Shown here piece after piece: positions 4,933-21,446 of a stretch of DNA of 21,446 nucleotides (its first letter is position 1; every line of letters begins with the position of its first letter). The stretch is from a virus. The stretch lies in the IMG/VR virus record IMGVR_UViG_3300017729_000052, positions 1-21,446 of that record; one strand, written 5' to 3'. The translations under genes and the position numbers were made by a program. Below the pieces are notes generated by a model. That model was not told the origin of the DNA and made no database searches. It saw only the letters and a program-made list of their open reading frames with translations.

Positions 4933-5724
4933 ATGACTATTGATACATTAGGAGCAAACGCTCTTGCAAGTAACTCTGTAACAACTGCAAAGATAGCGAA
5001 TAATGCCGTAACTGGTGCAAAAATTCCTGCTGATGCAGTTGTTGCTGCTGACATTGCTGATGGTTCAATCACTCAAGCAAAAATTGCTTCTACTGTAAGA
5101 TTAGGTCTTAAATCTGTTCAAGTCTTTACCTCAAGTGGAACATATACAAAACCAACTGGTATTAATACTGTCAAAGTATTTGTAACTGGTGGTGGTGGTG
5201 CTGGTGGTGCTCATGGTACTTTAGCTAATGACATGGGTTCTGGAGGTGGTGCTGGTGGTACTGCGATTGAAACTATAGATGTATCTTCTGTATCATCAGT
5301 AGCGGTCACTGTAGGTGCAGGCGGTGCTAGTGTTTCAGCAGGTGCTAATAATGGTTCTGGTGGTGGTACATCTTCATTTGGTTCTTACTGTTCTGCCACA
5401 GGCGGAAATGGAGGCTCTCATGGTAATGTTGGGGCTGGTATTGGTGGTGCTGGTGGCGTTGGAAGTGGTGGTGCCATAAACATATCTGGTGGTACTGGTG
5501 GTAATGGTTGGGATAATTTTAATGTAACTGACACTTATGCAAGAAGTTTTGGTTTTGGAGGCGCTTCTTTTTATGGAGGGGGTGGTCGTGGTTCATCTCA
5601 TACTTCAGTCGCTGCTTCGGGAGGTGAAGCCTTCGGTTCTGGTGGTGGTGGGGTACACTCAAGACACGGTGGTTCTTCTGGTGCTGGAAAAGCAGGAGTA
5701 GTTTATGTTGAGGAGTATGCATAA
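4933..5724 (+). CDS. Glycine-rich tail fibre / adhesin (263 aa)
   Basis: ATG 4933 follows a strong AAGGAG (4921-4926). Residues 14-54 form a ten-residue repeat (TTAKIANNAV, TGAKIPADAV, VAADIADGSI, TQAKIA), with the Lys or Asp exactly ten residues apart, as often seen at the start of marine phage fibres. From residue 63 (VFTSSGTYTKP) a glycine-rich domain runs to the end. It has a leading beta strand (NTVKVFVTGGGG), then VTVGAGG, then many Gly-Gly-x runs, and it closes with GVVYVEEYA. Gly-rich tip domains of this kind occur in tail fibres, and the gp38-type adhesins of T-even phages use polyglycine helices for receptor binding. The receptor role here is inferred. It overlaps the next gene by one base (TAATG). 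It shares domain layout with the product of 16325-17449. Confidence 0.75.
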   Translation: MTIDTLGANALASNSVTTAKIANNAVTGAKIPADAVVAADIADGSITQAKIASTVRLGLKSVQVFTSSGTYTKPTGINTVKVFVTGGGGAGGAHGTLANDMGSGGGAGGTAIETIDVSSVSSVAVTVGAGGASVSAGANNGSGGGTSSFGSYCSATGGNGGSHGNVGAGIGGAGGVGSGGAINISGGTGGNGWDNFNVTDTYARSFGFGGASFYGGGGRGSSHTSVAASGGEAFGSGGGGVHSRHGGSSGAGKAGVVYVEEYA

Positions 5725-6074
5725 TGAAAGCACTTATTTTAGATGGTATAGTCGTAGACGTTCAAAAAGAAGAATTTGAAGTACACTCTTCTATGTCATG
5801 GGTAGACTGTGATGATACAGTTATCGTTGGTTGGACTTATGATGGTAAAGATTTTAAGACAAACGAGATTAAATTTACAGAGGAAGAAGAGTTACAAAAA
5901 TTACGTTCAGTAAGAAATAATTTACTTACTTCGTCAGATTGGACTCAGATACCAGATGCTTCTATCACAAACGCAAAAAAAGAAAAGTGGAAAACTTACC
6001 GTCAAGAACTTCGTGATATTACTAAAACTGCGAGTAGTGTAGATGATGTAAAGTGGCCCACAAAACCTTCTTAA
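5724..6074 (+). CDS. Tail assembly chaperone-like protein (116 aa)
   Basis: ATG 5724 overlaps the stop of the glycine-rich fibre gene (TAATG), with GAGGAG at 5710-5715 inside that gene, so the two are probably translationally coupled. The C-terminal half (residues 60-116) has the pattern of the 'phage tail assembly chaperone' family often found beside tail-fibre genes: R-x-x-LL-x-x-x-DWTQ, then SITNAKKEKWKTYRQELRDI, then VKWPTKPS at the end. The N-terminal half (MKALILDGIVVDV...) is a short acidic beta region. The family is thought to help fold or attach the fibre encoded just upstream, which fits the gene order here. The protein is small and acidic and has no signal peptide. Whether it remains in the virion cannot be told. 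Confidence 0.75.
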   Translation: MKALILDGIVVDVQKEEFEVHSSMSWVDCDDTVIVGWTYDGKDFKTNEIKFTEEEELQKLRSVRNNLLTSSDWTQIPDASITNAKKEKWKTYRQELRDITKTASSVDDVKWPTKPS

Positions 6075-14484: not shown

Positions 14485-14712
14485 ATGACAGAATATATCA
14501 AAGTAGAAGAACACCCTAAACTTGTAAGAGATACATATTCTCGTGCAATTATTAATACAGACGTATATGCATACGAAGCTGCAATTACAAGATCAAGAAA
14601 TGCTAAACAGCAAAAAGATGATATGAGAGATGCAGTAAGGGATATAAATAACTTAAAGAGTGAGATGCATGAAATTAAGTCCTTGCTTCTAAAACTAGTG
14701 GATAAAGAATAA
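14485..14712 (+). CDS. Small charged coiled-coil protein of marine T4-like phages (75 aa)
   Basis: The start is placed at ATG 14485, one base after the stop of the giant gene. An upstream in-frame ATG at 14344 would overlap that gene by 140 bases and read as non-protein-like sequence. The product begins MTEYIKVEEHPKLVRD, has an AIINTDVYAYEAA segment (residues 21-33), and ends in a heptad-like, highly charged helix (about residues 38-75, DDMRDAVRDINNLKSEMHEI then LLLKLVDKE). The 'INTD-x-x-AY' plus terminal coiled coil pattern is one I know from small uncharacterised proteins in cyanophage and pelagiphage structural regions. It may be a small virion connector or assembly factor; no function is known. 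No clear ribosome site precedes it, so it is probably read by coupling. It overlaps the next gene by one base (TAATG). Confidence 0.75.
   Translation: MTEYIKVEEHPKLVRDTYSRAIINTDVYAYEAAITRSRNAKQQKDDMRDAVRDINNLKSEMHEIKSLLLKLVDKE
14643..14650 (+). promoter_or_regulatory. Possible internal late promoter box
   Basis: A perfect TATAAATA lies inside the 75-residue gene, 62 bases before the ATG at 14712. It is read as codons for Asp-Ile-Asn. If used, it would start transcripts near 14656 and drive the short fibre-like gene and what follows. In AT-rich coding DNA the match could be chance, so this is tentative. Confidence 0.4.
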
Positions 14713-15122
14713 TGGCAGATAGAAACGCACCTTCATCATTTACTTTAGAAGAGTGGAGAGTAGAGTTTAATGAACTGGCATCAGATGTTGGTGATGTTAC
14801 CTCTCTTCCTTCTACTGTAAATGGACAGAACGTAACAGATGTTGTTGGGGCAGTTGTTCAACTTGAAAGCGCTCTATCTTCTGTAATGTTCCCTACGGTT
14901 ATTGATTTTGATGACTCTTCGGGCGTAGCTTCTGAAAGAATTTTAATGGGTACACATGACGATCTCCAACTGTACCATGATGGAACAAAATCAGTAGTAA
15001 GTCACACAGGGACAGGTGAATTAGAACTTATTTCTAATACAACAACCTTGACATTTCCGAATGTTGGTGGTAAAATAGCTACTGAAGGTTTTGGAATTGC
15101 TCTTGCGATTGCACTTGGTTAA
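14712..15122 (+). CDS. Short tail-fibre-like protein (136 aa)
   Basis: ATG 14712 overlaps the previous stop. The N-terminus (SSFTLEEWRVEFNELASDVG, residues 8-27, then VTDVVGAVVQLE) is an attachment-type segment that starts many marine T4-like fibre genes. It is followed by a module with DDLQLYHDG (83-91) and GTGELELISN (about 99-108). In larger fibres that module is repeated; here it occurs once. The end, LTFPNVGGKIATEG then FGIALAIALG, is a 'LPD..GK'-type strand, like one in the gp10-type protein at 3883-4911, plus a hydrophobic C-terminal tail. The protein is complete, so it is a minimal fibre: attachment domain, one shaft module and a hydrophobic tip, perhaps a trimerisation or docking stub. 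Function inferred from modules only. Confidence 0.65.
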   Translation: MADRNAPSSFTLEEWRVEFNELASDVGDVTSLPSTVNGQNVTDVVGAVVQLESALSSVMFPTVIDFDDSSGVASERILMGTHDDLQLYHDGTKSVVSHTGTGELELISNTTTLTFPNVGGKIATEGFGIALAIALG

Positions 15123-15126
15123 GACT

Positions 15127-15134
15127 TATAAATA
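15127..15134 (+). promoter_or_regulatory. T4-type late promoter box (TATAAATA)
   Basis: A perfect TATAAATA lies in the 36-base gap, five bases after the stop of the preceding gene and 25 bases before ATG 15159. The predicted start of transcription is near 15140, followed by an AAAGGAAAA ribosome site (15144-15152). It probably drives the 15159-17806 gene run. Confidence 0.75.
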
Positions 15135-15158
15135 ATAGAGATTAAAGGAAAATAATAA

Positions 15159-15503
15159 ATGGCTAATAACTTTAAGAATGCATTTGCAACGAGTGTCAGT
15201 ACTAATGGCAGTTCACCTACAGATGTATATACAGCAAACAATGGTTCTGCCTGTAACTCCATTCTAATTGAACTTGATATCGCAAACACAGGTGTATCTG
15301 CTGTTCAGATTTCTGTTGTGATTAGAGATAGTAGTGGTAGTGCATCATTTCATCTAGTTAAAAACGCTCCAGTTCCAGTTGGATCTTCTTTGAAGGTTGT
15401 TTCTGGACAGAAGATTGTTTTGAATGGTAATGATAAAGTACAGGTTTATGCTACTGCAAATACTGTGGACGTTATTGCATCAGTTCTAGAAGACGTAGCA
15501 TAA
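15159..15503 (+). CDS. Small beta-rich virion protein, 'MANNFKNAF' family (114 aa)
   Basis: ATG 15159 follows AAAGGAAAA and a late promoter. The product begins MANNFKNAFATSVS and contains HLVKNAPVPVGSSLKVVSGQ (residues about 65-84), KIVLNGNDKVQVYA and a final VDVIASVLEDVA. This is the pattern of a small, all-beta protein that I recognise from many marine phage tail regions. It has alternating hydrophobic strands throughout, one cysteine, no signal peptide and no membrane segment. The family probably forms a small beta-sandwich that decorates the tail or a fibre, but no function has been assigned. It sits between two fibre-type genes, with a 12-base gap containing GAGGGG before the next gene. 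Confidence 0.7.
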   Translation: MANNFKNAFATSVSTNGSSPTDVYTANNGSACNSILIELDIANTGVSAVQISVVIRDSSGSASFHLVKNAPVPVGSSLKVVSGQKIVLNGNDKVQVYATANTVDVIASVLEDVA

Positions 15504-15515
15504 GAGGGGTAGATA

Positions 15516-16325
15516 ATGTCTAACTACATCGGCACTCCATTTGTGAATCAAGTATCTCCCGCTTTTCAGCAGGAAGATTTTACTGATTCAAATTTTGGAA
15601 ACGTAACAGTAGGTTCTACTACACACACAAACTCTACTACCTTGTCACAACAAGTGCCGGGCGGAAACGGAGAAAATATACTCGTTGTAATTAATAACGT
15701 AATTCAACAAGCAACATCTGCATATACTATTCAACAGGATGCAAATGGTGAACCAAAGATTTTGAAACTTGCAGGAGCTCCTGCTTCTAGTTCTATAATC
15801 TATGTTGTTCATAGAGGTATTGGTGGATTCCAAATGAAACCACCTACAGGTTCAGTCGGTGCAGATGAACTTGCAGCAAACTTAAAGTCTTTTACCAATG
15901 ATGTATTCACAGGTAATGGTTCAGCTACTGCATTCACTCTGTCAGAGACACCACCAAATGCAAACTCAGTTTTAGTATTTGTTGATGGTATCCTACAGAA
16001 GTCTTCATCAAACTATTCAATAAGTGGTACAACACTCACATTTACTTCTGCACCAGATGCTAGTGCAGAGATTGAGGCAAAACATTTTGGTATTCGTGGA
16101 GTAGTTCGTAGAAGTACAGACTATCAATATGATGCATTTACTGGAAACGGTTCTGCGACAACATTTAATTTAAGTACATCTGGTGCAACAACTAATAGTG
16201 CTTTTGTTTTTTATAACGGTATAGCACTTAAACCTTCCACAGACTATTCTATCAGTGGTATTGTTTTAACAACAACATTCACACCAATTAACGCATCTGA
16301 AATCACAGTGAGGTATCAAATCTAA
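15516..16325 (+). CDS. Fibre protein built of three repeated beta domains (269 aa)
   Basis: ATG 15516 is preceded by GAGGGG (15504-15509). After a short N-terminus (MSNYIGTPFVNQVSPAF), the protein has three copies of one domain, about residues 28-104, 128-195 and 205-269. The pattern is FTGNGSAT-x-F-x-LS, then V-x-V-x-x-x-G-x-x-x-x-x-x-x-Y-x-I, then a terminal strand. Copies 2 and 3 share FTGNGSAT (A/T)F almost exactly; copy 1 is diverged (HTNSTTL, NILVVINNVIQ). The domain resembles the 'VRFNGILQ...DYSV...' segment of T4 gp10, and the same unit occurs once at the start of the protein at 17839. It is probably a stalk or adaptor on which fibres are mounted. The gene overlaps the next by one base (TAATG), with GTGAGG (16308-16313) as ribosome site. 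Confidence 0.7.
   Translation: MSNYIGTPFVNQVSPAFQQEDFTDSNFGNVTVGSTTHTNSTTLSQQVPGGNGENILVVINNVIQQATSAYTIQQDANGEPKILKLAGAPASSSIIYVVHRGIGGFQMKPPTGSVGADELAANLKSFTNDVFTGNGSATAFTLSETPPNANSVLVFVDGILQKSSSNYSISGTTLTFTSAPDASAEIEAKHFGIRGVVRRSTDYQYDAFTGNGSATTFNLSTSGATTNSAFVFYNGIALKPSTDYSISGIVLTTTFTPINASEITVRYQI
16128..16322 (+). repeat. Third copy of the FTGNGSAT beta domain
   Basis: This is a tandem protein-level repeat inside the 15516-16325 gene. Copy 2 lies at 15897-16097 and copy 1, more diverged, at about 15598-15827. The DNA of copies 2 and 3 is only moderately similar, so the duplication is old rather than a recent slippage event. Confidence 0.6.
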
Positions 16326-17449
16326 TGCCAAGTAACTCAAAAAACCTAGCAGAACTCTTAAATACAGACACTACATTGGCTGCTGGAGATGTTGCATCTG
16401 GTTCTATTACAGCAGCTAAACTTGCTTCTAATGCAGTAACAACTGCAAAGATTGCTGCCGATGCAGTAACAGATGCAAAGGCAGACATCACAGCTGATGC
16501 AATATCTGATAAAGCAAATGCTTCTACAGGATATATACAAATACCAAAGGGAACAACTGCACAACGTCCAAGCAGTCCAGCAGATGGAATGATTAGATAT
16601 AATTCAACTCTTGACCTCTCAGAAGAATATAGAGATGGTCAATGGAGAGCGTTATCTAATGTTATTACCATAAGTGGAGGTACAAAAACAACCTCTGGTG
16701 GTTATACTATTCATACATTCACATCATCTGGAACTTTCTTGATTGATGGTGGTAATTTAACTGGTGTAGATTATCTAGTTGTCGCTGGTGGCGGCGGCGG
16801 TGGTTCTAGAAGAGCTGGTGGCGGTGGCGGCGGTGGAATGGTCAACGCAACCAACCAAACCATAACAGCAGGAGCTCACACAGTCACAATCGGTGCTGGT
16901 GGTGCTGGTGCTACTAGTGACACTGCTAATGGAGTAGTAGGTGGAAACACTTCTTTTGGCTCAATCCAAACTTGTACTGGTGGTGGTTACGGTGGTGGTG
17001 AAGCAAAAACAGGAGGCGCTGGCGGCTCTGGAGGCGGTGGTTCAGACGGGCAAGGGCCTGGTTCTGGAACTTCTGGTCAAGGTAATGCTGGTGGTACTTC
17101 TTTTGGTTCTTCTGGAGGCGGTGGAGGCGGCGGCAAAGGTGCCGTTGGTGAAGCTGGTGGAACAGACGGAGCAACAGAAGGTGGCGATGGCGGTGGCGGT
17201 TTAACACTCGCATACAGTGGAAGTTCAGTCGCATACGCTGGAGGCGGCGGTGGTGGAAGTCGTGATGGAGGAGCTGGTGGTACTGGTGCTAGTGGTGGTG
17301 GTAATGGTGGTGTAGATAATTCAACCGTAGCTACAGCAGGAGCCGCAAATAGAGGCGGTGGAGGCGGCGGTGGTGGTCGTAACGGCGGTACACCATTTGT
17401 TGGTGCTAACGGTGGTTCTGGTGTCGTTATTATTAGGTATCAAACGTAG
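16325..17449 (+). CDS. Second glycine-rich tail fibre / adhesin (374 aa)
   Basis: ATG 16325 overlaps the previous stop (TAATG). Residues 1-65 hold an attachment-type start (NSKNLAELLNTDTTL) and ten-residue repeats (GSITAAKLAS, NAVTTAKIAA, DAVTDAKADI) with lysines at 32, 42 and 52. A short domain with GTTAQRPSSPADGMIRYNS (about 78-96) and EEYRDGQWRAL follows; this 'RP.sp..G.iryN' motif is common in phage fibre proteins. From residue about 131 (TFTSSGTFLID) a glycine-rich domain runs to the end. It has the same order of landmarks as the product of 4933-5724: a strand into GGGG, VTIGAGG, a 'TSFGS' element, and a closing GVVIIRYQT. It is longer and richer in Gly runs. Likely receptor-binding, by analogy with polyglycine adhesins. 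The DNA here has dense GGT/GGC/GGA runs. Confidence 0.75.
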   Translation: MPSNSKNLAELLNTDTTLAAGDVASGSITAAKLASNAVTTAKIAADAVTDAKADITADAISDKANASTGYIQIPKGTTAQRPSSPADGMIRYNSTLDLSEEYRDGQWRALSNVITISGGTKTTSGGYTIHTFTSSGTFLIDGGNLTGVDYLVVAGGGGGGSRRAGGGGGGGMVNATNQTITAGAHTVTIGAGGAGATSDTANGVVGGNTSFGSIQTCTGGGYGGGEAKTGGAGGSGGGGSDGQGPGSGTSGQGNAGGTSFGSSGGGGGGGKGAVGEAGGTDGATEGGDGGGGLTLAYSGSSVAYAGGGGGGSRDGGAGGTGASGGGNGGVDNSTVATAGAANRGGGGGGGGRNGGTPFVGANGGSGVVIIRYQT

Positions 17450-17458
17450 GAGATTATT

Positions 17459-17806
17459 ATGGCACATTTTGCAAAAGTACTTAATGGAATAGTAGAAAAT
17501 ATTATAGTAGCAGAACAAGAGTTTATGGATACTTTTATTGATGACTCTCCAGGCGAATGGATTCAAACTTCATATAATACAAAAGAAGGTGTACATTCAG
17601 ATGGTGGTACTCCTTTAAGAAAAAACTATGCCATAATTGGTGGTACATATGATTCAACTAGAGATGCATTTATTCCTCAAAAACCATATCCAAGTTGGAC
17701 TTTAGATGAAGACAAATGTATTTACGTTGCACCCAAAGCATATCCAACTGACGGAAAAGATTATGATTGGGACGAGGACAAAACCTCTTGGATTGAATCA
17801 GACTAA
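17459..17806 (+). CDS. Small 'MAHFAK' family protein, possible fibre companion (115 aa)
   Basis: The ribosome site TAGGAG (17447-17452) includes the stop codon of the glycine-rich gene; ATG is at 17459. The product starts MAHFAKVLNGIVENIIVAEQ and contains WIQTSYNTKEG (about residues 34-44), GTPLRKNYAIIGGTYDSTRD (50-69) and PYPSWTLDEDKCIYVAP (about 76-92). It ends in an acidic YDWDEDKTSWIESD. I recognise this family from marine T4-like phages, next to fibre genes, but no function is assigned. Its start echoes that of the chaperone-like protein at 5724 (MKALILDGIVVDV), and it likewise follows a glycine-rich fibre. A companion or chaperone role is therefore plausible but unproven. It is acidic, Trp/Tyr-rich, with one cysteine and no signal peptide. 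Confidence 0.7.
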   Translation: MAHFAKVLNGIVENIIVAEQEFMDTFIDDSPGEWIQTSYNTKEGVHSDGGTPLRKNYAIIGGTYDSTRDAFIPQKPYPSWTLDEDKCIYVAPKAYPTDGKDYDWDEDKTSWIESD

Positions 17807-17838
17807 ATAGTATTATAAAAGATATGGGAAATAATTAA

Positions 17839-19164
17839 ATGCCATTTATAGGAAAACAACCAGAAGTAGGTGCATACTCTAAGTTAGACGCTATTACTGC
17901 GTCTGCTACTGCAACGTATAATCTAACTTTAGATAGTAGTGCATACTATCCAACAAGTGCAAATCATCTATTGGTTTCTCTGAACGGTGTCATGCAGGCT
18001 CCACAAGATTCATTCACAGTAAGTGGTTCGACAATCGTATTCGACTCTGCTCTAACAAGTTCTGATAGTATCGACTTTATCATGGCACTTGGTGACGTTC
18101 TAGATATTGGAACTCCAAGTGATGGTACAGTAACAAGTGCAAAACTTGATACAAATCTTTCTGCTACTACGTTGGATGTGACTAACCTAACATCTAAAGA
18201 TGATTTTATAGTTAATGGTACTGGAAGCAATTCGTCAAACTCTTTTACTATACAGCAGGGTACTAATGGATATGTTAGATCAAATAATAACTTGTATCTT
18301 GGTACACAAAATACGGATAGAGTTGCCATTATAAGTGGTAAAGTCGGTATTCAACATATGACACCTACAACGCCTTTACATGTAGAAACAGCTGGTGGTG
18401 GTAATTTTGTTGCTAAATTCAAAAATACTACTACTGCCACACCTTATGGTGTTCATGTACAAGATGCTAGCAGTGGTGCTAACGGATACCCTCTATTCCA
18501 AGTAACAGACCATGCAGGCACTGCCACATATTTTAGAGTTGATAGTGGAACGAGAAGGGCATATTTTAACAGTGCCGCAACTTACAATAATTCGGCTGTA
18601 AACATTAAAACTGATGTAGACAAAAATGGCATTGGAATTCATGCACTGAAATCATCAAACTCTAATTACTATTTTCTGAATTTTAGGACTGGCAGTGGTA
18701 CTACAGAAGTTGGTAATATTTATTCTAATGGTAGTAATACAACATATGCTACATCTTCAGATTATCGGCTTAAAGAAAATGTAAAAGATTTAGAAAATGC
18801 ATCTGATAGATTGAATCAATTAAATCCTAAGAGATTTAACTTTATTAATGATGAAACTAATACTCTAGTAGATGGATTCTTAGCGCATGAAGTACAGTCA
18901 ATTGTTCCAGAAGCAGTTGTTGGAGAAAAAGATGCAACAAAAGAAGAAGAGTATATTAAAACTGAAGCTGTTCTAGAAGTTCGTGATGAAGATGGAAAAG
19001 TATTAAAAGAAGAAGTTCCAGCTGTTATGGGAAAAAGAACAGTTGACTCATATCAAGGCATAGATCAAAGCAAACTTGTGCCTCTACTAGTCGCTTCTCT
19101 GCAAGAAGCTCTTGCAGAAATTGAAACCTTAAAAACTCGTGTGAAAACATTAGAAGATGCATAA
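17839..19164 (+). CDS. Tail fibre/spike with C-terminal S74 intramolecular chaperone (441 aa)
   Basis: ATG 17839 follows GGGAA (17826-17830). Residues 1-88 comprise MPFIGKQPEVGAYSKLDAIT and one copy of the repeated beta domain (HLLVSLNGVMQAPQDSFTV). A 'TVTSAKLDTNLSATTLDV' segment and a beta shaft follow (about 110-300; KVGIQHMTPTTPLHVETAG is a common fibre motif). The C-terminal part is a peptidase S74 / intramolecular chaperone domain: SSDYRLKENV at 306-315, GFLAHEVQSIVPEAV, YQGIDQSKLVPLL and a final coiled coil. In this family the domain helps the trimer fold, then cuts itself off. The Ser-Lys pair would be Ser307 and Lys312, with cleavage between 306 and 307. An unusual acidic stretch (about 368-403) sits inside the domain. 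The mature fibre would be about 306 residues. Confidence 0.85.
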   Translation: MPFIGKQPEVGAYSKLDAITASATATYNLTLDSSAYYPTSANHLLVSLNGVMQAPQDSFTVSGSTIVFDSALTSSDSIDFIMALGDVLDIGTPSDGTVTSAKLDTNLSATTLDVTNLTSKDDFIVNGTGSNSSNSFTIQQGTNGYVRSNNNLYLGTQNTDRVAIISGKVGIQHMTPTTPLHVETAGGGNFVAKFKNTTTATPYGVHVQDASSGANGYPLFQVTDHAGTATYFRVDSGTRRAYFNSAATYNNSAVNIKTDVDKNGIGIHALKSSNSNYYFLNFRTGSGTTEVGNIYSNGSNTTYATSSDYRLKENVKDLENASDRLNQLNPKRFNFINDETNTLVDGFLAHEVQSIVPEAVVGEKDATKEEEYIKTEAVLEVRDEDGKVLKEEVPAVMGKRTVDSYQGIDQSKLVPLLVASLQEALAEIETLKTRVKTLEDA

Positions 19165-19192
19165 AATATATAGAAACTTAGGAAATTAACAA

Positions 19193-20338
19193 ATGGCGTT
19201 GATTAAATTAAATACAAGAAGTATCCCAGACAATGCGGTGACGCCTGCCAAGGTATCACAAAACCTTGGGCGCAGAAATATGATAATTAATGGCGCCATG
19301 CAAGTATCACAATACGGCACCTCCGCAACAGGTATTACGAGTGGCAGCAATCTAACAGCAGATAGGTTTAGTTTTTCTACAGGAACTAATGGTGGTACAT
19401 ATACATTATCTACAACTACAACCGTTCCATCTGGTGAAGGATTCGAAAAAAGTCTAAAAATTGATTGTACAACTGCCGGAAATTATTCTACTGCTGGTAC
19501 TGCCACTATGTTAAGATGTTCGCCATTTGAAATTCAAGATTGTGCAAGACTAGCATACGGAACTTCTAGTGCAAAGAAATTAACAGTGTCATTTTGGACT
19601 CGTGCTAGTTATACAGGAACATTTACAGCATTGCTTGTAACACATGATTCTGCACAAAGAAATATTATAAAGACATTTACTATCTCTTCTGCTAACACAT
19701 GGCAAAAGGTTGTTCTAACTTATGATGGAGATACTGGAAGTACATTCACTGGGGCTGACATTAATCTGGGATTAAGCTTAGATATTTGGTTTGGTGGTGG
19801 AACTGATTATACTGGTGGTTCTCAAACAGATGGTGTCTGGAGAGCTCGATCAACACATAACACTTCTGTCTTACAAGGTAATGGTACATTGTTTGGTACA
19901 AACACTTCCCATGACTTCTATATAACAGGAGTACAGGTAGAAATTGGCGATGCAGCTACAGATTTCGAACACCGATCATATGGTGAAGAACTTGACCTTT
20001 GTGAACGCTATTTTCAAACTTATTCAAACCGAAACTGGCAAGGAACTAATGAACACGCAGTTAACTATAGTTTGTACTTGGATGGAGTTTTTACAAAAAA
20101 AATGAGATCTGCTCCAGCAGCAAGTATAGTTGGATTAGTAACTATTGGTAGACCACAAGTTTCTGTGAGTCAAAGACCAAACGTCATTGACGGTATATCT
20201 AATACTGGTTTTAGAGTGTGTCGATGGCCATCCAGTGGAACTTATGGTGGGTCGTTAGGTTCACATGGTGATGCGTATTATAGAATGTCAGTCGGTACTG
20301 GGCCTACAAATCGAATTGATTTTAGTGCTGAACTTTAA
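19193..20338 (+). CDS. Tail fibre tip / receptor-binding protein, GRRN family (381 aa)
   Basis: ATG 19193 follows TTAGGAAA. The N-terminus (SIPDNAVTPAKVSQNLGRRN, then MIINGAMQVSQ) has one AV-TPAK element and the GRRN-x-x-ING motif found in many fibre-tip or prophage tail proteins. A lectin-like beta-sandwich follows, about residues 50-260, with KLTVSFWTRA and NTWQKVVLTYDGD. Next comes ITGVQVEIGDAATDFEHRSY then GEELDLCERYF (about 246-280), another landmark of this family. The C-terminal 100 residues appear unique to this gene and would be the variable receptor-facing part. Function inferred from family motifs: trimeric host-recognition tip. It is paralogous to the truncated gene at 20536. Cysteines near 92, 106, 114, 270 and about 343 are unusual for a fibre but need not pair. 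Confidence 0.75.
   Translation: MALIKLNTRSIPDNAVTPAKVSQNLGRRNMIINGAMQVSQYGTSATGITSGSNLTADRFSFSTGTNGGTYTLSTTTTVPSGEGFEKSLKIDCTTAGNYSTAGTATMLRCSPFEIQDCARLAYGTSSAKKLTVSFWTRASYTGTFTALLVTHDSAQRNIIKTFTISSANTWQKVVLTYDGDTGSTFTGADINLGLSLDIWFGGGTDYTGGSQTDGVWRARSTHNTSVLQGNGTLFGTNTSHDFYITGVQVEIGDAATDFEHRSYGEELDLCERYFQTYSNRNWQGTNEHAVNYSLYLDGVFTKKMRSAPAASIVGLVTIGRPQVSVSQRPNVIDGISNTGFRVCRWPSSGTYGGSLGSHGDAYYRMSVGTGPTNRIDFSAEL
19955..19980 (+). repeat. Direct repeat in fibre-tip paralogues (first copy)
   Basis: These 26 bases (GCTACAGATT ... CGATCATA) recur at 21145-21170 with a single difference (C to T at the tenth base or so). They encode ATDFEHRSY in both fibre-tip genes. The copies are about 1.19 kb apart in direct orientation and so could support recombination between the two genes. 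Confidence 0.7.
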
Positions 20339-20350
20339 GGGAGATATATT

Positions 20351-20533
20351 ATGAAAATAATTACAGATGCACAGTATATAAAAAATGAAGATAAAGTAAA
20401 TCAGACTATTTTTTGTAAAATTAATGGTAAGGAATGGAGTATTCCAATGGACGTAGACAATTCTGATTATGCAGAAATTCTAAAACAAGTGTCTGATGGT
20501 ACTTTAACAATTAAAGATGCTGATGAGGAATAA
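20351..20533 (+). CDS. Small acidic fibre-associated protein (60 aa)
   Basis: ATG 20351 is preceded by a strong AAGGGAG (20337-20343) that begins with the last base of the upstream stop. The product MKIITDAQYIKNEDK..., with KINGKEWSIPMDVDNSDYAE (about residues 24-43) then ILKQVSDGTLTIKDADEE, belongs to a kind of short protein that often follows fibre-tip genes in phages. The recurring pattern is 'sVP.D..N.dYaEi..qv..G.L.i'. It is acidic, 60 residues long and has no membrane segment. Function is unknown; by position it may assist folding of the adjacent tip protein. It lies between two paralogous tip genes, two bases before the second, and carries that gene's ribosome site (GAGGA, 20525-20529). 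Confidence 0.75.
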   Translation: MKIITDAQYIKNEDKVNQTIFCKINGKEWSIPMDVDNSDYAEILKQVSDGTLTIKDADEE

Positions 20534-20535
20534 AA

Positions 20536-21446
20536 ATGGCACTTAGTAAAGTAAATCCAAGTCTAGTTCAAAACTTTGGACGTAGAAATCTTTTAATCAA
20601 TGGCGACTTTCAAGTTAATCAGAGAGGCGATGGTAGTGGTGTAGGTACTAATGCTGGTTATGTAGGTGTCGATAGATGGCGTGCTTATATTTCAACTAGT
20701 AGTACCGTAAATTTTGTTCAACAAACATTTGCGAATGGACACTCAGATGTTGATAGAAACTTGCGTCACTATTTGAAATTTGATTGGTTAGGAACTGGTG
20801 CTGCTCAAACAAAAACTTTAACCCAACACATAGATAATGTTAATACAGGCAATGGACAAAAGGTTACTGTTTCTTTTTGGGGAAGAACAGAACAAGGAGA
20901 TGATTGTGTCCTAAAATTATACCAAGTTTTTGGAAGTGGTGGTTCTTCGACTGTTGAGCATGCTAGTGGAACAATTGATCTTACAACATCATGGAAATAT
21001 TTCACACATACATTTGATGTGACTTCAACTTCTGGTAAGACAACTGGAGCAGGGAATAAATTAAGTTTAGAATTTGTATTTGGCCCAGCAACACTGAATT
21101 CATACTTTGAAGTAGCAGGAGTTCAACTAGAACTTGGCGACACTGCTACAGATTTTGAACACCGATCATACGCAGAAGAACTTTCGGCTTGTCAGAGGTA
21201 CTTTGAGCGTCAACATTACCCTGCTAACGATCAAGTGTGTGTTTCAATGAAATGGTCTGGGTACGGATACATGGGTCACATTACCTGTATGGAAGTCAAA
21301 AGAACAGAACCGACTGTAAGTTCTACTGGGATAGTTAAGCACATGGGGCAGGCGTCCTTCTCTAACACTGTCTCACCAACATGGCAGTATATGACTCCCC
21401 AAGGTGTTGGGATATATTCAACTCCAACTAGCGGGCCAACAGGTGA
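20536..21446 (+). CDS. Second GRRN-family fibre tip protein (3' end outside window)
   Basis: The frame is open from ATG 20536 to the window edge, 303 codons so far, with GAGGA at 20525-20529. It begins MALSKVNPSLVQNFGRRNLL, INGDFQVNQRGDG, with YVGVDRWRAY next, as in many fibre tips. The body is a lectin-like beta-sandwich (QKVTVSFWGRTEQGDD at about 113-128, TSWKYFTHTFDV). VQLELGDTATDFEHRSYAEE follows (about 196-215), then LSACQRYFERQ. The layout follows that of the gene at 19193, with strong similarity at both landmark segments and little between them. The last 80 residues present (WSGYGYMGH... onward) have no counterpart upstream and are likely variable. It was easy to miss because it has no stop in the window. 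Confidence 0.75.
   Translation, partial: MALSKVNPSLVQNFGRRNLLINGDFQVNQRGDGSGVGTNAGYVGVDRWRAYISTSSTVNFVQQTFANGHSDVDRNLRHYLKFDWLGTGAAQTKTLTQHIDNVNTGNGQKVTVSFWGRTEQGDDCVLKLYQVFGSGGSSTVEHASGTIDLTTSWKYFTHTFDVTSTSGKTTGAGNKLSLEFVFGPATLNSYFEVAGVQLELGDTATDFEHRSYAEELSACQRYFERQHYPANDQVCVSMKWSGYGYMGHITCMEVKRTEPTVSSTGIVKHMGQASFSNTVSPTWQYMTPQGVGIYSTPTSGPTG
21145..21170 (+). repeat. Direct repeat in fibre-tip paralogues (second copy)
   Basis: This is the second copy of the 26-base segment at 19955-19980, 25 of 26 bases identical, encoding the ATDFEHRSY segment that precedes the variable end of the tip protein. Confidence 0.7.

What the first reader, a model, noticed from the sequence alone, without database searches (positions are those of the whole stretch)
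14485..21446. Dense array of modular receptor-binding genes with small companions
Several fibre or tip genes are each followed directly by a small protein: the glycine-rich fibre at 4933 by the chaperone-like 5724 gene, the glycine-rich fibre at 16325 by the 115-residue gene, and the tip at 19193 by the 60-residue gene. The 5724 product resembles known fibre-assembly chaperones. The other two are uncharacterised families in the same position. This suggests a general rule of fibre plus dedicated folding partner, with three partner types in one phage.
Basis: partly seen in the sequence, partly recalled or inferred. Interest (0 to 1): 0.6.

Follow-up and report, generated by a model that had tools for sequence, protein, structure and literature searches.

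The report
Phage fibre tips with matched partners
In this marine virus each of three tail-fibre tip genes is followed by a small gene whose family matches the kind of tip, and in sister viruses the tip and its small partner are replaced together, so the small proteins are probably folding helpers or caps dedicated to particular tip types.

Summary
The window is a fragment of a marine T4-like phage related to Melnitz. Three fibre genes are directly followed by small genes: 4933/5724, 16325/17459 and 19193/20351.

The 5724 product is a known-type tail-fibre assembly chaperone (PF16778). The 115-aa product (phrog_7759, function unknown) shares that chaperone's N-terminal beta domain but lacks its helical domain. 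So two of the "three partner types" are related. The 60-aa product matches nothing described.

Pairing by tip class is near-exclusive:
- 146/148 sixty-aa genes follow one fibre family ending -(A/S)EL (32/33 among bystander pairs).
- 70/75 members of the 115-aa family follow glycine-rich tips ending like IIRY.
- 11/11 chaperones with the 5724-type N-terminus follow glycine-rich tips ending like VEEY.

Melnitz isolates reported to share at least 99.95% ANI exchange whole cassettes. The companion family changes with the tip (115 to 88 aa, 60 aa to chaperone, 74 aa to 115), and identity resumes within 4 bases of the companion's stop codon. The sister contig of the window does the same: an S74 self-chaperoned tip became another tip plus a new 88-aa gene.

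Fibre-plus-downstream-chaperone is known (T4, Mu, V22, Pam3). The new parts are the tip-companion code and undescribed companion families. Folding function and absence from virions are inferred, not shown.

The parts
4933..5724 (+). Glycine-rich fibre/tip, C-terminus ...AGKAGVVYVEEYA (VEEY class)
   Evidence: PF21722 1e-14; phrog_863 7e-45
5724..6074 (+). Tail-fibre assembly chaperone (TAP): N-terminal beta domain (about residues 1-50) plus C-terminal APC helical domain (about 55-115)
   Evidence: PF16778 3e-18, PF02413 5e-5; solved structure 2kz6 matches residues 56-115 at 5e-13
14485..14712 (+). Small conserved virion protein of about 75 aa at the start of the array (not a companion)
   Evidence: phrog_473 3e-22
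14712..15122 (+). Short fibre-like protein, no companion
   Evidence: weak tail-fibre PHROG hits
15159..15503 (+). 114-aa conserved protein of unknown function; also present in Melnitz at the same place
   Evidence: phrog_26609 1.5e-12; Melnitz 96740-97084
15516..16325 (+). Fibre/connector protein without companion
   Evidence: phrog_18673 1e-13
16325..17449 (+). Glycine-rich fibre/tip, C-terminus ...GGSGVVIIRYQT (IIRY class)
   Evidence: PF21722 4e-18, phrog_2295 7e-67
17459..17806 (+). 115-aa companion: Tfa-like N-terminal beta domain, no APC helical domain, Trp/Pro-rich beta C-terminal part
   Evidence: phrog_7759 8e-29; AlphaFold2 pLDDT 94.9; profile match to the 5724 N-domain
17839..19164 (+). 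Fibre with C-terminal S74 intramolecular chaperone; no adjacent companion. In the sister contig the tip from about 18149 on is replaced by a non-S74 tip followed by an 88-aa gene
   Evidence: PF13884 1e-12
19193..20338 (+). Fibre of the 'GRRN-IINGAMQV ... AEL' family (jelly-roll-like N part, hypervariable distal part, conserved C-terminal AEL)
   Evidence: phrog_4492 1e-45; family analysis
20351..20533 (+). 60-aa companion, predicted beta-beta-beta-alpha
   Evidence: 67-member alignment A4; AlphaFold2 pLDDT 89.3; adjacency
20536..21446 (+). Second fibre of the same GRRN/AEL family, cut by the window end; its companion is predicted just beyond the window
   Evidence: phrog_4492 1e-54; the sister contig has a 57-aa companion after its homologue

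Best explanation
The small genes encode tip-class-specific assembly partners of the fibre encoded just upstream. A partner binds the distal end of the newly made fibre trimer, helps it fold and register, and is then shed or stays as a cap. Tip plus companion is the unit that recombination exchanges, onto a resident N-terminal shaft. The 5724 protein is a classical two-domain fibre assembly chaperone: the N-domain recognises VEEY-type glycine-rich tips and the helical C-domain trimerises. The 115-aa protein keeps the fibre-recognition domain, matched to IIRY-type glycine-rich tips, and replaces the helical domain with a Trp/Pro-rich beta extension. The 60-aa protein is an unrelated minimal partner for the GRRN/AEL fibre family. 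The S74 fibre carries its chaperone in cis. Shown: adjacency, class specificity, co-replacement, and the shared domain of 5724 and the 115-aa protein. Inferred: binding, chaperone activity, and fate in the virion.
For: (1) Adjacency: 79/79 sixty-aa genes with an upstream gene follow the GRRN fibre family. Over deduplicated loci the counts are 146/148 for c60, 70/75 for c115 and 11/11 for 5724-type chaperones after VEEY tips; bystander pairs not used as queries give 32/33 and 5/5. (2) Reverse test with the fibre as query: 62/73 intact fibres have a 60-aa family gene next, 6 more have a 54-62 aa ORF (at least 5 recognisably divergent homologues, one unclear), and 5 lack one. (3) Natural exchanges: Melnitz versus Melnitz-3 changes 115 to 88-aa, 60-aa to TAP and 74-aa to 115 exactly where tips change, and keeps fibre and TAP at 99%/98% where the tip is unchanged. 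In the two replaced blocks that end in a companion, identity resumes within 4 bases of its stop codon. Window versus sister contig: S74 tip replaced by another tip plus an 88-aa gene (phrog_6228); 60-aa companion 48% identical beside a replaced tip, 115-aa companion 99% identical beside an unchanged tip. The slot before gp8 has VEEY+TAP in the window and IIRY+115-family in Melnitz. (4) Shared domain: hhalign score 29.7 against at most 17.2 in 200 column shuffles; phrog_14370 matches both N-termini. Best PDB fold hit of the 115-aa model is Pam3 7ypx chain a, E 0.73, not significant alone; its 162 residues equal the length of chaperone gp25, whose N-domain has the same element count and whose fibre gp24 is glycine-rich (PMC9608196). 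(5) Companions are the conserved part: mean pairwise identity 0.51 for the 60-aa proteins against 0.28 for fibre distal parts, unlike a receptor-binding protein.
Against: No binding, folding or virion data. The 60-aa protein has no detectable relationship to any chaperone. Several tandem glycine-rich fibres share one 115-aa gene, some VEEY tips (L143, L265, L406) and one Melnitz-3 glycine-rich fibre have no adjacent companion, and five GRRN fibres lack one. Within the 60-aa family the companion need not change when the distal part changes (L191/L226, L165/L203). Five cyano-, roseo- and pelagiphage loci were included, but most loci are environmental contigs chosen for similarity to the window.
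Confidence: 0.72

Rival explanations
1. The companions are permanent structural parts of the tip (a cap or small adhesin kept in the virion, as Mu Tfa or the gp38 adhesin of T2/S16-type fibres) rather than transient folding aids.
For: Mu Tfa stays in mature particles (reported in PMC9608196). The 115-aa protein lacks the trimerising helical domain of Tfa-type chaperones, so it could act purely as a tip-bound cap. Co-replacement with the tip fits equally well.
Against: As adhesins they should be the variable part, but the 60-aa companions are much more conserved than the distal fibre. One 115-aa gene serves several tandem fibres in some phages, which fits a catalytic or shared role better. V22 gp27, a downstream partner, is absent from the mature fibre (PMC7289586).
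Confidence: 0.2
2. Hitchhiking: the small genes have no functional link to the tips and are swapped only because they lie beside a recombination hotspot.
For: Linkage alone would also give joint replacement. Within the 60-aa family the companion can stay nearly unchanged when the distal part changes. The partial Mantel correlation of companion with tip is weak (r 0.17, p 0.001).
Against: Class-exclusive pairing across podo-, sipho- and myophages, exchange boundaries at the companion stop codon rather than at random places, and homology of two of the families to a fibre chaperone.
Confidence: 0.06

Closest known systems
Myocyanophage Pam3 gp24 (glycine-rich fibre) and gp25 (Tfa chaperone), PDB 7YPX, PMC9608196
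   Same: Glycine-rich distal fibre domain; partner co-cloned as one gp24-gp25 segment; N-terminal beta-sandwich of two plus three strands with one short helix, as in the 115-aa model; C-terminal helical domain as in 5724
   Different: The 115-aa protein lacks the helical trimerising domain and has a Trp/Pro-rich beta extension; fold match E 0.73 only; several glycine-rich fibres and partner families in one phage
Tail-fibre assembly proteins Tfa/gpK/APC (Mu Tfa; Pfam PF02413, PF16778)
   Same: 5724 is a member by both Pfam profiles; modular N-domain matched to the fibre and conserved C-domain
   Different: The 115-, 60- and 88-aa families do not hit these profiles (and hhalign for the 60- and 88-aa families)
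Alteromonas phage V22 gp26/gp27 and A5 gp8/gp9 (PMC7289586, PMC10579305)
   Same: Downstream small protein needed for, or acting as transient cap on, the fibre; fibre and chaperone shared as a module between distant phages
   Different: Larger chaperone (21.8 kDa, DUF4376 type); no family code between several tip classes in one phage was described in the passages read
S74 intramolecular chaperone (PF13884)
   Same: Present in fibre 17839; alternative solution in cis in the same array
   Different: Encoded within the fibre; no separate gene
Melnitz isolates EXVC044M/043M/040M/039M (PMC9004378)
   Same: Same gene array and same companion families; the authors noted nine genes of altered length in one isolate in this region
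   Different: They judged the genes to have the same function where annotated; here they are shown to be different tip classes with different companion families

Membership tests
Tfa/APC tail-fibre assembly chaperones (5724 product) | APC or Caudo_TAP domain above the curated cut-off | tested here: met
   PF16778 65.8 bits (cut-off 26.6), PF02413 24.0 (cut-off 22.1)
Tfa/APC tail-fibre assembly chaperones (5724 product) | Gene directly downstream of a fibre gene | tested here: met
   Overlap of 1 base with 4933-5724; 11/11 relatives follow VEEY-type glycine-rich fibres
Tfa/APC tail-fibre assembly chaperones (115-aa product) | N-terminal fibre-recognition beta domain | tested here: met
   hhalign to the 5724 N-domain prob 84, score 29.7 against at most 17.2 in 200 shuffles; phrog_14370 hits both; topology as Pam3 gp25 N-domain
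Tfa/APC tail-fibre assembly chaperones (115-aa product) | C-terminal helical trimerisation domain | tested here: not met
   No Pfam hit; model has only short beta strands after residue 72
Tfa/APC tail-fibre assembly chaperones (60-aa product) | Any sequence or fold relationship to Tfa/APC | tested here: not met
   hhalign prob 0.3; no relevant PDB sequence or fold hit
Intermolecular fibre chaperone (functional class, all companions) | Genetic unit with its fibre: conserved adjacency and co-transfer | tested here: met
Intermolecular fibre chaperone (functional class, all companions) | Physical complex with the fibre distal end | not testable with these tools
   Only single-chain prediction was offered; no natural fibre-companion fusion among the loci
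Intermolecular fibre chaperone (functional class, all companions) | Required for folding; absent from or capping the mature fibre | not testable with these tools
   Needs co-expression and virion mass spectrometry
S74 intramolecular chaperone fibre (17839) | PF13884 domain at the C-terminus | tested here: met
   48.2 bits, cut-off 22

The most novel reading that the evidence does not exclude
Marine tailed phages use a readable code in which each fibre-tip class is bound to its own small-protein family. The 60-aa and 88-aa families would be two fibre-assembly partner families unrelated to any known chaperone, and tip plus partner is the exchange unit of host-recognition modules, so the partner gene alone predicts the tip class.
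Probability: 0.4. Interest if true: 0.75.

Novelty: new variant of a known kind. Interest (0 to 1): 0.6.

Why it matters
Receptor-binding tips of uncultured marine phages are hypervariable and hard to recognise, but the companions are short and conserved (51% mean identity in the 60-aa family), so they mark tip genes and tip classes in metagenomes: at least 566 IMG/VR stretches match the 60-aa family alone. If companions are needed for folding, tips expressed without the right partner would be non-functional, which matters for anyone producing or swapping fibre tips of laboratory phages. The Melnitz isolates give a ready cultured system: same host strain, near-identical genomes, different tip and companion cassettes.

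Tried and rejected
- Natural fibre-companion fusions that could be folded as one chain: none among 60-aa and 115-aa loci.
- PDB fold search of the 60-aa model: no credible match, best E 0.24 to ribosomal proteins. PDB sequence search with its profile: only mite allergen at E 0.04, taken as chance.
- Homology between the 60-aa family and TAP, 115 or 88 families: none.
- C-terminal AEL as a signal present only when a 60-aa gene follows: rejected, because fibres of the family without a detected neighbour also end in -EL.
- Tip-sequence-specific coevolution within the 60-aa family: only weak (partial Mantel r 0.17, p 0.001), with counter-examples of unchanged companion beside a changed tip.
- First 60-aa single-sequence scan of viral contigs found one locus; the family alignment was needed.
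- The scan of bacterial genomes gave only 5 loci, all metagenome-assembled contigs. Three with an intact upstream gene again show the -(A/S)EL fibre, one is truncated and one is a chance match.
- Literature searches for an earlier description of these companions found none in the held library. Subscription papers, including the Mu Tfa structure paper, are not held.
Full report
WHAT THE WINDOW IS. The record is a 21,446-base virus fragment. Its nearest relatives among isolates are the four Melnitz myophages of OM43 bacteria, about 79% identical over scattered stretches. Reading left to right: gp6, a gp53/gp7-like wedge protein, a gp9/10-type connector, Gly-rich fibre 4933-5724, chaperone 5724-6074, gp8, a 2320-aa DUF4815 protein, then the dense array from 14485 to the end.

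THE THREE PAIRS. 4933/5724, 16325/17459 and 19193/20351 are adjacent with gaps of -1, 9 and 12 bases. 5724 is a tail-fibre assembly chaperone by two Pfam profiles and by the solved structure 2kz6 (5e-13). The 115-aa protein has only phrog_7759, of unknown function, and the 60-aa protein has nothing significant. The S74 fibre at 17839 has an intramolecular chaperone and no small neighbour. The second GRRN fibre at 20536 is cut by the window end.

CONSERVED, CLASS-SPECIFIC ADJACENCY. Of 80 IMG/VR loci found with the 115-aa protein, nearly all have a glycine-rich fibre directly upstream, gap -4 to +29. All 79 sixty-aa loci with an upstream gene have the same fibre family there, gap -14 to +26, with C-terminus -AEL or close to it. 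Reverse test: taking the fibre 19193 as query, 62 of 73 intact relatives are followed by a 60-aa family gene. Six more are followed by a 54-62 aa ORF, at least five of them recognisably divergent relatives, and five have none. After removing near-duplicate loci the table is near-diagonal: c60 with GRRN-AEL 146/148, c115 with Gly(IIRY) 70/75, 5724-type TAP with Gly(VEEY) 11/11; other TAPs, with other N-domains, follow other tips. Counting only bystander pairs, whose companion family was not the query that fetched the locus, c60 is 32/33 and c115 5/5. The VEEY rule holds from companion to tip but less well in reverse: three VEEY fibres have no adjacent TAP.

EXCEPTIONS. In S-CAM8, DSL-LC04 and L081 a glycine-rich IIRY fibre lies a little further upstream and 2OG-Fe(II) oxygenase genes sit between it and the 115-aa gene. 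Several phages have two or three glycine-rich fibres in tandem before a single 115-aa gene (L017, L038, L075, L078, L242). So the rule is one companion per tip class and cassette, not one per fibre.

NATURAL SWAPS. The sister contig 3300021185_000666 (L003) is about 97% identical to the window up to 18148. It then differs only in: the tip of 17839, where the S74 tip is replaced by a non-S74 tip and an extra 88-aa gene (phrog_6228) appears, with identity resuming 4 bases after that gene; and the tip of 19193, replaced from 20011 together with most of its 60-aa companion (48% identical). The 115-aa companion beside the unchanged tip is 99% identical. Beyond 20587 the second GRRN fibre also diverges. 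Melnitz and Melnitz-3, described as 99.95-100% identical by ANI (PMC9004378), show the same in culture. Slot A: Gly(IIRY)+115 becomes another tip +88-aa, N-terminal 98 residues kept. Slot B: GRRN-AEL+60-aa becomes another tip +TAP. Slot C: unchanged fibre and unchanged TAP (99%, 98%). Slot D: another tip +74-aa becomes Gly(IIRY)+115. Slot E: fibre replaced, no companion in either. Slots A and B were replaced as one block. Identity resumes within 4 bases of the stop codon of the companion that ends each block (B, D), or of the fibre (E). The authors had noted nine genes of altered length there and identical host range on three OM43 strains, without this reading. The slot just before gp8 carries VEEY+TAP in the window, IIRY+115-family in Melnitz and a MEIAQ-ended tip+TAP in Mosig.

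THE 115-AA PROTEIN IS A TRIMMED RELATIVE OF THE CHAPERONE. The N-domains of 5724 relatives and of the 115-aa family align by hhalign (prob 84, score 29.7; 200 column-shuffled controls reach at most 17.2, and unrelated family controls 9). phrog_14370 matches both N-termini at 1e-5 level. Melnitz gene 164 and S-CBS4 gp049 look intermediate by eye. The AlphaFold2 model of the 115-aa protein is confident (pLDDT 94.9) with order strand-strand-helix-strand-strand-strand, then four short strands. Its best PDB match among 350,542 chains is 7ypx chain a; E is 0.73, so this is only suggestive. The chain's 162 residues equal the length of chaperone gp25, whose N-domain is described as two plus three strands and one short helix, and which caps a glycine-rich fibre (PMC9608196). 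The APC helical domain of 5724 is missing.

THE 60-AA PROTEIN. Confident model (pLDDT 89.3), beta-beta-beta-alpha, no known relatives. It is more conserved (mean 0.51) than the fibre N part (0.38) and the distal part (0.28), and can stay nearly unchanged while the distal part changes. It therefore most likely recognises a conserved feature of the family, such as the C-terminal AEL end (inference).

MECHANISM. Shown: genes, adjacency, class specificity, co-replacement, shared domain. Inferred from Tfa-type and V22/Pam3 precedents: binding to the distal trimer, help in folding or registering, then release or capping.

LIMITS. Loci were selected by similarity to the window, mostly environmental. 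Tip classes were assigned by simple rules (glycine content, C-terminal motifs, one HMM). No interaction, folding or virion data. One natural pair of isolates and one contig pair are few events, though independent and concordant.

Noticed in passing
L239 (S-CAM8), L244 (DSL-LC04), L081; also L240 (S-RSM4), L242 (HTVC023P): 2OG-Fe(II) oxygenase genes sit between, or directly after, a glycine-rich fibre and its 115-aa companion in several cyano- and pelagiphages; possible modification of the fibre or its partner.
   Followed up: partly
L010-L015, L017, L025-L032, L041-L050 and others; Melnitz 100717-101931: Many glycine-rich fibres end, after the Gly-rich domain, with an extra copy of the strand that normally precedes it (...SSGGYTIHTFTSSGTYTA*), as if a second repeat were cut short just before its glycine part.
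   Followed up: no
L003:7277-7543 and Melnitz-3 101644-101901: 88-aa family (phrog_6228, unknown function), a further companion type following tips that often carry a DDYEEGTWTP motif; more than 200 IMG/VR stretches match.
   Followed up: partly
Melnitz MZ577097 105372-105596: 74-aa protein after a 220-aa fibre, replaced by a 115-aa family gene in Melnitz-3: possibly yet another companion family.
   Followed up: no
L243:2792-3487 (phiPsal1) and the gene upstream of L080:6001: Valine- or leucine-rich annotated or mechanical ORFs directly upstream of 115-aa family genes look like glycine-rich fibres read in a shifted frame; could be sequencing error, a frameshifted gene or wrong annotation.
   Followed up: no
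Melnitz-3 MZ577098 105375-107057: Glycine-rich fibre ending GIVIVRYAI without an adjacent companion, in a genome with other 115-aa family genes: a test case for sharing in trans.
   Followed up: no
L045, about 3 bases after 4056: A glycine-rich fibre ending GIVVVTTYF is followed by a 60-aa ORF (MRYAIVDDATKVVQNVIIWDG...) that looks like the TAP N-terminal domain alone.
   Followed up: no
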